Shown here piece by piece: positions 11,388 through 57,700 of a DNA stretch of 64,000 bases (position 1 is its first letter; each line of letters begins with the position of its first letter). The position numbers were made by a program, and so were the translations under genes. The stretch is from contig SMMW01000214.1 of assembly GCA_004794655.1 (NCBI GenBank), forward strand, positions 1,246,001-1,310,000, given 5' to 3'. Source of the DNA: Marisa cornuarietis (lineage: Eukaryota; Mollusca; Gastropoda; Architaenioglossa; Ampullariidae). The notes beneath the pieces were generated by a model, which saw only the letters and a list, made by a program, of their open reading frames with translations, did no database searches and was not told the DNA's origin.

Positions 11388-11810
11388 ATGCCCGATGACG
11401 CCATCACGGTCACCAACGACAGCAGCAGCGTGGCAGTCAATGGTAGCGGCGCCAAGGACCACAGCCACTGTAAGTACTACCTACCAGGCCCCCCCATCGA
11501 CCAGTGCTACACCTCGGACGAAGAGCTTCTGCGGAGCATCGAGGAGTACCTGCAGCCGTCGGTGACGGAGTGGGTCTTCCTCGCCCTCTACCTCGTGTGC
11601 TTTGTGGTGGGACTGGGCGGCAACGCCCTGGTGGTGTGGGCGGTGTGTCGCAACTCGCACCTGCGCTCCACCACCAACGTGCTGCTGACCAACCTGGCGC
11701 TGGCCGACTTCCTGGCTGTCTTGGTGTGCATGCCACCCAACTTCGCGCAAACCATCTGGGAGACCTGGTTCCTGGGCCGCACACTGTGCAAGCTTGTGGA
11801 GTACTACCAG
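11388..11810 (+). CDS. Neuropeptide-type class A GPCR, exon 1 (N-terminus to TM3 start)
   Basis: First coding exon of a rhodopsin-family receptor that would bind a secreted peptide at the plasma membrane and signal through G proteins. The ATG at 11388 is preceded by an in-frame TAA at 11373-11375, which fixes the start. Residues 1-60 form the extracellular tail with glycosylation sites NDS (10-12) and NGS (18-20). TM1 is about 62-86 with GN at 78-79; TM2 is about 98-118 with LALAD, Asp107. Then comes ETWFLG (125-130) in the first outer loop and Cys134 at the top of TM3. The exon ends in phase 0 at CAG|GTAGGG. Joining all five core exons gives 372 residues plus a tail, with C134 to C217 disulphide, ERW at 158-160, FLP in TM6 and NPIIY at 341-345. 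The closest resemblance I recall is to orexin/allatotropin-like receptors; the ligand is unknown. Confidence 0.9.
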
Positions 11811-33502: not shown

Positions 33503-33878
33503 GTCGTCTTTATCATCGTCTCTATCTTGACTCTCACCGCCATCTCGGTGGAGCGCTGGTTTGCCATCTGCCGACCTATGACCTTTAAGCAGACACGGAC
33601 TCGAGTGATGCTGTGTCTGGCGTTTATCTGGGTCGCAGCCCACGTGACTGCGGTGCCCAAGCTGTTCATCATCGAAACGGTAGGCGATTCCTTGGTGCCT
33701 GCCAACCTCACCATCCTGCTGACAGCCTGTGCTCCCGGCCCCGGGCTGCAGGCCATGGCGCTGGACTACGAGATCTTCCTGTGCGTCGTCTTCTACGCCA
33801 TGCCCATCGTCGTCATGGGCTACGCCTACACCGCCATCGCCATGAAGCTGTGGTCGTCCAAGGCAGGCATTCTGATGG
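33503..33878 (+). CDS. Neuropeptide-type class A GPCR, exon 2 (TM3-TM5)
   Basis: Acceptor CTCTCCCAG|GTC joins in phase 0 to exon 1, making a continuous TM3 (about 134-157: YYQ then VVFIIVSILTLTAISV). TM3 ends in E158-R159-W160, the DRY-motif position, followed by FAICRPMTF. TM4 is about 177-195 with Trp184 and Pro193. The second outer loop has glycosylation site NLT (209-211) and Cys217, the disulphide partner of Cys134. TM5 is about 231-252 with Pro242. The ERW form and the WFAIC context recall the orexin/allatotropin branch, where DRWYAIC is usual. The exon ends in phase 1 at ATGG|GTGAGC. Confidence 0.92.
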
Positions 33879-34992: not shown

Positions 34993-35041
34993 GTGTGTGT
35001 GTGTGTGTGTATCTGTGTGTGTGTGTGTGTGTGTGTGTCAG
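34993..35041 (+). promoter_or_regulatory. (TG)n tract forming the acceptor region of the TM6 exon
   Basis: The bases before the CAG acceptor (35039-35041) are almost only TG dinucleotides with one ATC interruption. There is no ordinary pyrimidine tract. UG repeats next to a weak 3' splice site are known in human CFTR exon 9 to bind TDP-43 and promote skipping. Whether this works here is inference. Confidence 0.7.
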
Positions 35042-35165
35042 AGAGCGACTCCAAGGCTATGATGACGCAGCTGAAGGTGAGGCGCAGGACGGCCAAGATG
35101 CTCATCATCGTCGTCATCGCCTTTGTCATCCTGTTCCTGCCTGTATACATCTGGAACATGATCAG
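35042..35165 (+). CDS. Neuropeptide-type class A GPCR, exon 3 (ICL3 and TM6)
   Basis: 124-base exon joining phase 1 on the left (G|AG gives Glu267) and leaving phase 2 (AG) on the right. It encodes SDSKAMMTQLKVRRRTAKML, the basic end of the third inner loop, and TM6 (about 286-306) with F294 and FLP at 298-300, the position of the usual CWxP. Its length is not a multiple of three, so skipping would shift the frame and stop the protein before TM6. The last 11 bases, AACATGATCAG, form the beginning of the first unit of the adjacent minisatellite. Confidence 0.9.
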
Positions 35166-36822
35166 GTGAGCACCTCTCTGTTTACATGTGTAACATGATC
35201 AGGTGAGCACCTCTCTGTTTACACGTGTAACATGATCAGGTGAGCACCTCTCTGTTTACATGTGTAACATGATCAGGTCAGCACCTCTCTGTTTACAAGT
35301 GTAACATGATCAGGTGAGCACCTCTCTGTTTACACGTGTAACATGATCAGGTGAGCACCTCTCTGTTTACACGTGTAACATGATCAGGTGAGCACCTCTC
35401 TGTTTACATGTGTAACATGGTCAGGTGAGCACCTCTCTGTTTACATGTGTAACATGATCAGGTCAGCACCTCTCTGTTTACATGTGTAACATGATCAGGT
35501 GAGCACCTCTCTGTTTACACGTGTAACATGATCAGGTGAGCACCTCTCTGTTTACACGTGTAACATGATCAGGTGAGCACCTCTCTGTTTACACGTGTAA
35601 CATGATCAGGTGAGCACCTCTCTGTTTACACGTGTAACATGATCAGGTGAGCACCTCTCTGTTTACACGTGTAACATGATCAGGTCAGCACCTCTCTGTT
35701 TACACGTGTAACATGATCAGGTCAGCACCTCTCTGTTTACATTTGTAACATGATCAGGTCAGCACCTCTCTGTTTACATGTGTAACATGATCAGGTCAGC
35801 ACCTCTCTGTTTACATGTGTAACATGATCAGGTGAGCACCTCTCTGTTTACACGTGTAACATGATCAGGTCAGCACCTCTCTGTTTACACGTGTAACATG
35901 ATCAGGTCAGCACCTCTCTGTTTACACGTGTAACATGATCAGGTCAGCACCTCTCTGTTTACACGTGTAACATGATCAGGTGAGCACCTCTCTGTTTACA
36001 TGTGTAACATGATCAGGTCAGCACCTCTCTGTTTACACGTGTAACATGATCAGGTGAGCACCTCTCTGTTTACATGTGTAACATGATCAGGTGAGCACCT
36101 CTCTGTTTACACGTGTAACATGATCAGGTGAGCACCTCTCTGTTTACACGTGTAACATGATCAGGTGAGCACCTCTCTGTTTACACGTGTAACATGATCA
36201 GGTGAGCACCTCTCTGTTTACATGTGTAACATGGTCAGGTGAGCACCTCTCTGTTTACATGTGTAACATGATCAGGTCAGCACCTCTCTGTTTACATGTG
36301 TAACATGGTCAGGTGAGCACCTCTCTGTTTACATGTGTAACATGATCAGGTCAGCACCTCTCTGTTTACATGTGTAACATGATCAGGTGAGCACCTCTCT
36401 GTTTACACGTGTAACATGATCAGGTCAGCACCTCTCTGTTTACATGTGTAACATGATCAGGTGAGCACCTCTCTGTTTACACGTGTAACATGATCAGGTC
36501 AGCACCTCTCTGTTTACACGTGTAACATGATCAGGTCAGCACCTCTCTGTTTACATGTGTAACATGGTCAGGTGAGCACCTCTCTGTTTACATGTGTAGC
36601 ATGTTAAGGTCAGCACCTCTCTGTTTACATGTGTAACATGATCAGGTCAGCACCTCTCTGTTTACATGTGTAACATGATCAGGTCAGCACCTCTCTGTTT
36701 ACATGTGTAACATGATCAGGTCAGCACCTCTCTGTTTACATGTGTAACATGATCAGGTCAGCACCTCTCTGTTTACATGTGTAGCATGTTAAGGTCAGCA
36801 CCTCTCTGTGAGAAGTGTAGCT
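35155..36822. repeat. 37-bp minisatellite derived from the exon 3/intron 3 junction, about 45 units
   Basis: The unit is AACATGATCAG, then G(T)GAGCACCTCTCTGTTT, then ACATGTGT. Its first copy is the true splice junction: the last 11 coding bases of exon 3 plus the first 26 intron bases. Later units keep either AG|GTGAGC, a full donor consensus, or AG|GTCAGC. The final units (AGCATGTTAAGGTCAGC) are diverged. Intron 3 therefore starts with dozens of perfect copies of its own donor. Confidence 0.95.
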
Positions 36823-37340
36823 GGGGTCATCGCTGTTCCCTCGATCTTGTGACGATGGTCAGTTTTACAGTCGAACAACAGGGAGTAACATCTTCCTCAC
36901 CGAGTATCCTGTTGTATATTTATTCATTTGCCAGTTGACTCAGTAAAAAGATTTAGATCTTCATTTCAATTGTCTAAACAAAACTCGTAAGTCCTTACCC
37001 GCTGGTTTTCCATGTTTTTAATCGCTGAGCTTTAACGAATCCAACAAAGTCCGCTGCATGTCTGCTCCATAACTGAATGATCAGGGGGTCAAAGCTTGGT
37101 TCTTTAACTTGAAGCCGGTCAACCATGAGCTAATTTTGTTGCCTGGTAATTTTTTTCTTACTACATTTTCTTACTTTATTTGTAAAATACGTGTCCTTTC
37201 ACACATTATTAAGATCTGTGCCAGATTACGTATAAATACAATGTAAAATCAAACTTTCTTCTTATATTAAATTTACTAACATTATTCTAACAGTATAAAA
37301 ATACAGTATCAGTCTGTGCAGACATCAGTGACGTATCAAA
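36823..37340. other. Receptor intron 3, middle: nothing recognised
   Basis: AT-rich sequence with no supported element. Confidence 0.4.
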
Positions 37341-38455
37341 AAGTTGGTAAATTCCTAAATTAGACTAAACTAAATTAATTAGACCAGACTAAATTACTCA
37401 ATTAGACTAGACTAAATTAATTAGACCAGACTAAACTACAAAATTAGACTAGACTAAATTAATTAAACCAGACTAAACTACTAAATTAGCCTAGACTAAT
37501 TTAATTAGACCAGAATAAATTACTGACTTAGACTAGACTAAATTACTCAATTATGCTAGACTAAACTACTAAATTAGACTAGACTATATTAATTAGAACA
37601 GATAAATAACTCAATCAGACTAGACTAAATTACTCAATTAGACTATACTAAATTAATTAGACCAGACTAAATTACTCAATTAGATTAGACTAAATTACTC
37701 AATTTGTCTAAATTACTAAATTAGACTAGACTAAAGTACTCAATTAGACTAAAATTACTCAATTAGATTAGACTAAATTAATCAATTTGACTAGACTAAA
37801 TTGCTCAATTAGACTAGACTAAACTACTCAATTAGACTAGACTAAATTACTCAATTAGACTAGACAAAATTACTCAATTTGACTAGACTAAATTACTCAA
37901 TTAGACTAGACTAAATTACTCAATTAGACTAAACTACTCAATTAGACTAGACTAAACTACTCAATTTGACTAAACTAAATTACTCAATTTGACTAGACTA
38001 AATTACTCAATTAGACTAGACTAAATTACTCAATTAGACTAGACTAAATTACTCAATTAGACTAAAGTACTCAATTAGACTAGACTAAACTACTCAATTT
38101 GACTAAACTAAATTACTCAATTTGACTAGACTAAATTACTCAATTAGACTAGACTAAACTACTCAATTAGACTAGACTAAACTACTCAATTAGACTAAAC
38201 TAAATTACTCAATTAGACTAGACTAAATTACTCAATTAGACTAGACTAAACTACTCAATTAGACTAGACTAAACTACTCAATTAGACTAGACTAAATTAC
38301 TCAATTAGACTAGACTAAATTACTCAATTAGACTAAACTACTCAATTAGACTAGACTAAACTACTCAATTTGACTAAACTAAATTACTCAATTTGACTAA
38401 ACTAAATTACTCAATTTGACTAGACTAAACTACTAAAATAGACTAGACTAAATTT
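37341..38455. repeat. AT-rich 23-bp minisatellite, about 48 units
   Basis: Units of the form CTCAATTAGACTAGACTAAA plus TTA, with a TTAATTAGACCAG variant at the left end and CTCAATTTGACTA variants in the right half. It lies in intron 3 about 330 bp before exon 4. Confidence 0.9.
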
Positions 38456-38784: not shown

Positions 38785-38909
38785 GCTGTCGGCGCCCCAG
38801 ACCCTGTCCTACATGGATGCCCATATCATCTCTGGAATCACTCTGGGTGCTCTTCTTCTTCTGGTCATAAACAGCTGCATCAATCCTATCATCTATAACT
38901 TCATGTCAG
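38785..38909 (+). CDS. Neuropeptide-type class A GPCR, exon 4 (ECL3 and TM7)
   Basis: Acceptor CTTCACTTGCAG joins phase 2 (AG|G gives Arg308). It encodes LSAPQTLSYMDAHIISG and TM7 (about 323-345) with N337-S-C and the signature N341-P-I-I-Y345, then NFMS. It ends in phase 1 at TCAG|GTTTGT. Reading on into the intron would stop soon, so splicing to exon 5 is required. Confidence 0.9.
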
Positions 38910-39452: not shown

Positions 39453-39521
39453 TGAAGTTCCGGAATGAATTCCGTGCAGTGTGTCACTGCTGGCTCAAGA
39501 TCTGCGCAGCAGGAGACAAAG
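39453..39521 (+). CDS. Neuropeptide-type class A GPCR, exon 5 (helix 8)
   Basis: 69 bases that follow the previous exon in phase 1 (G|TG gives Val350). They encode KFRNEFRAVCHCWLKICAAG, DK: an amphipathic helix 8 with the KFRxEF pattern typical of class A peptide receptors and several cysteines that could be palmitoylated. The exon leaves phase 1 at AAAG|GTGCAAG. Without splicing the frame stays open to a stop at 39647-39649, which would add an unrelated tail, so a longer terminal version cannot be excluded. Confidence 0.85.
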
Positions 39522-57497: not shown

Positions 57498-57700
57498 GTG
57501 ATTGGCAGTGTGCTTATTTACGACGCCATATTCTTCTTCATACATCTAATACTGCACAAGCACCGGAACCTGTACTCCCTGCTTCATGCATGCCATCACG
57601 TGCATGAGGTCATGCACGCGCACGTCACCAACCAGCTGTCAGTGGGAGAACGTGTTACGCTGGTTCTCGCCGCTAACCAGGCGTTGAAAATACTCTTTAG
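57498..57700 (+). CDS. Cholesterol 25-hydroxylase-like protein, exon 3 (histidine boxes 1 and 2)
   Basis: Residues 169 to 236 (last codon split). It carries the first two iron-binding histidine boxes in the right order and spacing: HX3H as H184-LIL-H188 in a hydrophobic context (IYDAIFFFIHLILHKH) and HX2HH as H198-AC-H201-H202. It then continues VHEVMHAHVTNQLSVGE, where CH25H has KVHHQ followed by ATQYLSVWE. Acceptor CTTTCAG|GTG, donor TTTAG|GTTGGT, leaving phase 2. Confidence 0.88.

What the first reader, a model, noticed from the sequence alone, without database searches (positions are those of the whole stretch)
35155..36822. A splice junction turned into a minisatellite: about 45 tandem copies of the receptor's own TM6 donor site
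The 37-bp unit is the real exon 3/intron 3 junction: the last 11 coding bases AACATGATCAG plus the first 26 intron bases. The intron thus offers dozens of perfect AG|GTGAGC donors in a row, with others changed to AG|GTCAGC. If any downstream donor is used, the reading frame runs AGG TGA and stops at once, giving a receptor cut after TM6. The array could therefore act as a decoy or buffer for U1 snRNP binding, or as a length-variable switch between full and truncated receptor. I know of no described case of a coding/intron junction amplified this far.
Basis: partly seen in the sequence, partly recalled or inferred. Interest (0 to 1): 0.9.

Follow-up and report, generated by a model that had tools for sequence, protein, structure and literature searches.

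The report
Splice-donor minisatellite in a receptor gene
In an animal's predicted orexin-like receptor gene, a 37-base piece spanning the end of an exon and the start of the next intron is repeated 45 times head to tail, and these spare splice sites likely lower the amount of working receptor a little, since longer repeats of a similar build go with less activity or expression in the human genes CBS and ABCA7.

Summary
The array is exactly 45 units of 37 bp without indels (35141-36805). It carries 24 CAG|GTGAGC donors, the genuine one included, 19 CAG|GTCAGC and 2 AAG|GTCAGC. All 44 later donors give the same stop after TM6 (308 aa) with exons still downstream, so decay of the mRNA is likelier than a stable truncated receptor. 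The array probably began by slippage between two CTGT copies 37 bp apart.

The claim that no such case is described is wrong: human CBS (24 exonic + 7 intronic bases), ABCA7 and IFI6 are precedents. The donor 9-mer is among the more variable parts of the unit, so nothing suggests that the spare donors are kept by selection.

The less expected result is recurrence. Of 26 regular arrays picked by a donor motif from the listed part of this 534-Mb genome, 14 begin within 7 bases of a donor-like GT, against 1 of 13 control arrays; at least five of 30 sit at exons of recognisable genes. That threshold was set after seeing most of the data, and the planned replicate did not complete.

The parts
35141..36805 (+). 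37-bp minisatellite, 45 units, each carrying one AG|GT donor
35141..35177 (+). unit 0: last 25 bases of predicted exon 3 + first 12 bases of intron 3
   Evidence: 3 differences from the consensus, all in the exonic part
35166..35171 (+). predicted genuine exon 3 donor GTGAGC
   Evidence: the reading frame and 7TM match fit a junction here
36806..36842 (+). right edge: CTGT shared with the unit start, then a degenerate partial copy; likely the original slippage microhomology
   Evidence: and reading
11388..11810 (+). predicted exon 1 (start to TM3)
   Evidence: Pfam 7tm_1
33503..33878 (+). predicted exon 2
35042..35165 (+). predicted exon 3 (TM6), 124 nt
38785..38909 (+). predicted exon 4 (TM7)
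39453..39521 (+). predicted exon 5; later exons not located
34993..35038 (+). (GT)n run forming the pyrimidine-poor acceptor of exon 3
   Evidence: pyrimidine fraction 0.5 against 0.6-0.9 at the other three acceptors
37348..38454 (+). second, unrelated AT-rich minisatellite (about 23/46 bp) in the same intron, without CAGGTRAG

Best explanation
It is a minisatellite made of 45 copies of the exon 3/intron 3 junction of a predicted orexin-type receptor gene; it likely arose by replication slippage and is predicted to act as a passive, slightly costly splicing burden rather than as a switch. Shown: a 37-bp segment (25 exonic + 12 intronic bases) is repeated without indels, CTGT begins the first unit and follows the last, and every copy keeps AG|GT. 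Inferred: slippage between the two CTGT copies made the first duplication; the copy left in the intron changed at three positions; slippage or unequal exchange then spread it. Inferred: the spliceosome uses mostly the first donor, next to the real exon. A small leak to later donors adds multiples of 37 nt, all of which stop at AGG TGA and leave exons downstream, so that mRNA is probably destroyed by nonsense-mediated decay. A long array may also favour skipping of exon 4, as ABCA7 suggests. The expected sum is a modest loss of functional receptor mRNA.
For: Exact 45 x 37 bp, exon match 22 of 25 bases, CTGT at both edges. Gene: Pfam 7tm_1 E=2.1e-51, best solved relative hypocretin/orexin receptor 2, E=7.2e-65. 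Each of 44 later donors stops at 308 aa. No sign of selection for donors: among the 44 intronic copies the donor 9-mer has heterozygosity 0.065 against 0.032 in the rest, rank 31 of 37 rotations where rank 1 is most conserved. The region is rich in minisatellites: 16 arrays that I picked from the TRF table cover 19.7% of the window. Precedents: in ABCA7 retention of one unit (second donor) frameshifts and stands at about 2% (taking the paper's 'respectively' in order), and longer arrays go with lower expression and more exon 19 skipping (PMC5954066, passages); in CBS more 31-bp units are reported to lower activity (PMC5188458, passage).
Against: No RNA evidence at all. In ABCA7 retention of a repeat unit did not change with array length, so a length effect through later donors is not what the best precedent shows; there it ran through skipping of the next exon. 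By pairing with U1 (5' end ATACTTACCTG in the one copy read) 23 later donors equal the genuine one (-11.1 kcal/mol), and in-vitro work with duplicated donors favoured the intron-proximal copy (recalled, not checked), so heavy use of later donors cannot be excluded. No relative with the pre-array intron could be examined.
Confidence: 0.58

Rival explanations
1. The array is a kept regulatory device: a U1 sink or a length-dependent switch between full and truncated receptor.
For: 24 donors in the array, the genuine one among them, pair with U1 at -11.1 kcal/mol; from the exon 1 donor to the end of exon 5 the only other site as strong is the exon 1 donor. Exon 3 also has a weak (GT)n acceptor, so its inclusion may depend on donor strength.
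Against: Donor 9-mer not conserved among intronic copies; 21 of 44 have C at +3. All 44 later donors give the same premature stop with further exons downstream.
Confidence: 0.12
2. The 5' splice site itself is an anchor where minisatellites form or survive in this genome; the index array is one of a class. This can be true together with the best explanation.
For: 14 of 26 regular donor-motif arrays start within 7 bases of a donor-like GT (expected 6.2) against 1 of 13 control arrays and 3 of 12 right edges; recognisable exons end at the first donor in 5 of 30 listed arrays.
Against: Arrays were picked by a donor motif, which favours real donors; the threshold was set after seeing most of the data; the Rayleigh test is weaker (P=0.033); controls were picked a little differently (see Tried and rejected); the planned replicate with AAGGTAAG did not complete. 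The index array itself starts 25 bases before the GT.
Confidence: 0.3
3. A ladder for recursive splicing or a nascent intron: each AG|GT serves as acceptor and donor.
For: AG|GT in 45 of 45 units, as in the AGGT duplication model (PMC4974935, passages).
Against: The 20 bases before each CAG are half pyrimidine (consensus unit), no better than the weak exon 3 acceptor; nothing shows any intronic AG in use.
Confidence: 0.05
4. Assembly artefact: a wrongly expanded or collapsed repeat.
For: No raw reads could be seen.
Against: Nine unit variants in an irregular order, no indel, one place in a 1.76-Mb contig of an assembly with 534 Mb in 572 contigs.
Confidence: 0.04

Closest known systems
Human CBS 31-bp VNTR, c.1444_1467+7(16_21) (PMC2630376, PMC5188458, PMC1395315: passages only)
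   Same: By its notation the unit is the exon end (24 bases) plus the intron start (7 bases), tandem and of constant unit length, so copies should carry the donor.
   Different: 16-21 copies against 45; unit of 31 bp; length variation and a link to enzyme activity are reported there, nothing is known here.
Human ABCA7 intron 18 25-bp VNTR (PMC5954066: passages only)
   Same: Array begins at the exon donor; retention of one unit frameshifts to a premature stop; dozens of copies.
   Different: Its first two bases are the donor GT, so no exonic stretch is described; alleles up to about 10 kb; the length effect is on skipping of the next exon, not on unit retention.
Human IFI6 (6-16) minisatellite (PMC4526556 intro passage; Turri 1995, title only)
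   Same: Repeat units serve as alternative splice donors.
   Different: 12-bp unit (recalled), hence in frame, so isoforms differ by a few residues; here 37 bp with an immediate stop.
Intron gain by tandem duplication of AGGT segments (PMC4974935: abstract and passages)
   Same: Tandem duplication of exonic sequence with AGGT.
   Different: Here an existing junction is multiplied inside an existing intron; no new intron is shown.
Human internal tandem repeats at exon-intron boundaries (PMC2812944: passages only)
   Same: Minisatellites of about 30 bp at gene boundaries that can change splicing.
   Different: Those are in recent human paralogues, repeated about 4 times on average.

Membership tests
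Minisatellites that include a 5' splice site (CBS/ABCA7/IFI6 kind) | Tandem array whose first unit overlaps or abuts the exon's own donor | tested here: met
   unit 0 spans the predicted exon 3 donor at 35165/35166
Minisatellites that include a 5' splice site (CBS/ABCA7/IFI6 kind) | Later units keep donor sequences as good as the first | tested here: met
   23 later CAG|GTGAGC; equal U1 pairing energy; 21 of 44 later units are weaker; sequence only, use not shown
Minisatellites that include a 5' splice site (CBS/ABCA7/IFI6 kind) | Later donors are used in transcripts | not testable with these tools
   no RNA data held
Minisatellites that include a 5' splice site (CBS/ABCA7/IFI6 kind) | Copy number varies between individuals | not testable with these tools
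   one assembly, one locus
Intron gain by AGGT tandem duplication | Duplicated segment holds AGGT | tested here: met
   AG|GT in 45 of 45 units
Intron gain by AGGT tandem duplication | A new intron runs from one copy's GT to another copy's AG | not testable with these tools
   the gene model needs no such intron; no RNA data
Orexin/hypocretin-type 7TM receptor | Rhodopsin-family 7TM protein with orexin receptors as nearest solved relatives | tested here: met
   7tm_1 2.1e-51; hypocretin receptor 2 at 7.2e-65, next family 2.1e-36; ligand not tested

The most novel reading that the evidence does not exclude
In this genome the 5' splice site is a recurrent birthplace or refuge of minisatellites: dozens of genes carry arrays that start at the exon/intron boundary and multiply the donor, so splicing of many genes is exposed to array-length variation.
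Probability: 0.35. Interest if true: 0.7.

Novelty: new member of a known kind. Interest (0 to 1): 0.42.

Why it matters
One such array is a curiosity with human parallels that bear on disease risk. Many such arrays in one genome would be a natural experiment: arrays of identical donors with different exon content, unit length and frame would let one measure directly how the spliceosome chooses among equal 5' splice sites, and whether minisatellites form or survive preferentially at exon-intron junctions.

Tried and rejected
Genome-wide counts of donor triplets against reversed motifs (585 vs 184; 348 vs 46) look like an excess, but I do not use them as a test: matches are not arrays and the reversed word is not a fair control. 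The 6-mer GTGAGT triplet was swamped by (GTGA)n runs and dropped. Block structure inside the array: the longest run of identical units at a fixed offset is 4, shuffles give 3.5 on average, so none is claimed. Paralogues as an outgroup: the nearest multi-exon-like hits are 36-48% identical and cannot date the intron; not pursued. The first gene model had exon 2 wrong and a broken frame; one search corrected it. Species: not identified, because the protein database was switched off.

Selection and rows dropped. Only the first places of each genome list are shown, so all arrays come from that part. Donor-motif arrays listed: 18 + 12 = 30, all looked at. For the phase test I left out 3 irregular ones (L016, L057, L082) and one second copy (L085 of L061), leaving 26; the index array is also left out (it would be a miss: 25 bases). 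In L083, counted as a hit, the first donor is 52 bp from the next, out of register with the 28-bp period; without it the count is 13 of 25, P=0.0019. Scored as misses though an edge lies at a donor: L052 (begins GTAAG) and L064 (TRF starts at its CAG). Controls: 13 arrays with at least two overlapping matches; 17 other listed places (single matches or irregular) were left out, whereas single-match donor arrays were kept. Right edges run from the last in-register donor and some are internal breaks (L014), so that control is rough.

Families: 18 open frames from 18 of the 30 arrays went to Pfam and 5 to the PDB. Without a match in one or both: L051 none in the PDB; L083 and L056 none in Pfam; L068 only a chance-level Pfam match (0.056); L067 none in either; L050, L014, L018, L027, L054, L059, L062, L066, L082, L084 none in Pfam. 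Controls: 10 frames from 10 of 13 arrays to Pfam, no match; none to the PDB, and a 142-residue Ser/Thr-rich frame on the other strand at L078 was not searched. That comparison is one-sided.

Full report
Observation. The region 35141-36805 is 45 consecutive copies of a 37-bp unit without one indel (TRF 45.1 copies at 96%). The gene model reads five exons on the + strand: 11388-11810, 33503-33878, 35042-35165, 38785-38909, 39453-39521 (later exons were not found). The 372-residue product matches Pfam 7tm_1 (2.1e-51), and its nearest solved relatives are the orexin/hypocretin receptors (7.2e-65; the next family 2.1e-36). The window lies at G000:C116:1246001-1310000 in a 534-Mb assembly of 572 contigs; a piece of the array matches only here.

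Anatomy. Unit 0 is the last 25 bases of exon 3 plus the first 12 of intron 3. All 44 intronic copies differ from it at the same three positions, all in the exon-derived part (43 of 44 carry the same base at one of them, all 44 at the other two). Read in frame they are GTA to GTT (silent), ATC to ATG and TGG to TGT in the consensus. The exon is therefore the likely source, and the copy was changed before it spread. Right after the last unit the sequence again begins CTGT, as the unit does, and then departs. Two CTGT copies 37 bp apart are what a slippage duplication would need. This origin is inferred.

Donors. The units carry 24 CAG|GTGAGC, 19 CAG|GTCAGC and 2 AAG|GTCAGC. The U1 copy that I read has the usual 5' end ATACTTACCTG (42 U1 matches; letters of one). 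Paired with it, CAGGUGAGC gives -11.1 kcal/mol and CAGGUCAGC -6.9. From the exon 1 donor to the end of exon 5 there are 25 GU sites at least as good as the predicted exon 3 donor: 24 in the array (that donor included) and the exon 1 donor. The acceptor of exon 3 sits on a (GT)n run, with a pyrimidine fraction of 0.5 against 0.6 to 0.9 at the other three acceptors. Exon 3 thus has a weak acceptor and a crowd of strong donors.

Consequence of a later donor. Each retained unit adds 37 nt, and the frame runs AAC ATG ATC AGG TGA in the first retained unit, so all 44 later donors end the protein at 308 residues, after TM6. Exons 4 and 5 still follow, so by the usual rule (recalled) such mRNAs should be degraded. 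A stable truncated receptor is possible but less likely.

Selection. If the intronic donors were kept as decoys they should vary less than the rest of the unit. They vary more: mean heterozygosity 0.065 against 0.032 over the 44 intronic copies, rank 31 of 37 rotations with rank 1 the most conserved. That goes against a maintained decoy. It does not exclude a side effect.

What is known. The library holds traces of three human precedents. ABCA7: a 25-bp repeat in intron 18 whose first GT is the exon 18 donor. Retention of one unit frameshifts and, taking the paper's order, was 2 +/- 1%; it did not change with array length. Length went with lower expression and with exon 19 skipping (PMC5954066, passages). 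CBS: c.1444_1467+7(16_21), by its notation 24 exonic plus 7 intronic bases, 16 to 21 copies (PMC2630376, passages), listed as exon 13-intron 13 (PMC1395315, passage), with more units reported to lower activity (PMC5188458, passage). IFI6: downstream repeat units used as donors (PMC4526556, intro passage; the 1995 paper by title only). The anatomy of CBS is the same as here.

Does it recur in this genome? Arrays with three CAGGTGAG or three CAGGTAAG at 20-50 bp spacing were listed (only the first places of each list are shown). All 30 listed arrays were looked at; one is a second copy of another and three are irregular, which leaves 26. In 13 of the 24 tested first, the homology begins at most 7 bases before a donor-like GT (expected 5.7, P=0.001; the threshold was set after looking). 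With L083 (a hit) and L084 (a miss) it is 14 of 26, expected 6.2, P=0.0009; the threshold-free Rayleigh test gives P=0.033. Right edges show 3 of 12, expected 2.7. Control arrays picked by GGTTGA show 1 of 13, expected 2.6; Fisher for 14/26 against 1/13 gives P=0.006.

Exons at the arrays. Five of the 30 have a recognisable coding exon ending at the first donor: bZIP in L016 (3.3e-6) and beta-lactamase in L051 (0.0014, below Pfam's cut-off), AMOP in L063 (5.9e-7), DUR3 urea transporter in L068 (8e-4), chitin synthase in L083 (0.002). L056 is weak (cell-surface hyaluronidase, 0.06). In L060 a p24/GOLD exon (2.5e-7) ends 43 bp before the first array donor. In L051 the unit again holds exon: a 23-base extension before the first GT. 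L050 has a 40-base extension behind an open frame without a family match.

Reading of the recurrence. Picking arrays by a donor motif favours real donors, so the existence of such arrays is unsurprising in a genome where minisatellites fill about a fifth of the window. The left-edge clustering is less easily explained by the picking, because the motif could lie anywhere in the unit. It may mean that duplications start at the junction (CAG microhomology), or that exon-bearing copies are removed or diverge. The replicate that I fixed in advance did not complete, so I hold this at about one in three.

Verdict. The most likely account is a slippage-born junction minisatellite with a modest cost to receptor mRNA. 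What would lift it is the genome-wide class.

Noticed in passing
window 34993-35041: The exon 3 acceptor is a (GT)n run ending in GTCAG, pyrimidine fraction 0.5; a weak acceptor beside a strong donor array.
   Followed up: partly
G000:C48:2259757-2260490 (edge in L062): A 32-bp array whose units read pyrimidine tract, CTGCAG, CTACAG, GTAAGC: each unit looks like acceptor + 6-nt exon + donor.
   Followed up: no
L056 (G000:C48:2236000-2237900): A 21-bp donor array behind an open frame weakly like cell-surface hyaluronidase; one retained unit would be in frame (7 residues), the next has a stop.
   Followed up: partly
G000:C29:2014700-2015500 (L061) and G000:C71:70380-71180 (L085): The same 47-bp array and flank occur on two contigs, identical over 747 of 747 compared bases: a haplotig or a recent duplication.
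   Followed up: partly
window, 16 arrays picked from the TRF table: Minisatellites of 12-72 bp units cover 12.6 kb, 19.7% of the window; only the index array holds CAGGTRAG.
   Followed up: yes
window 57498-57698: An open frame with a sub-cut-off fatty acid hydroxylase match (1.3e-5), likely a second gene.
   Followed up: no
G000:C112, C230, C231, C348, C451, C503, C527: U1 matches in tandem clusters about 4.2-4.3 kb apart.
   Followed up: no
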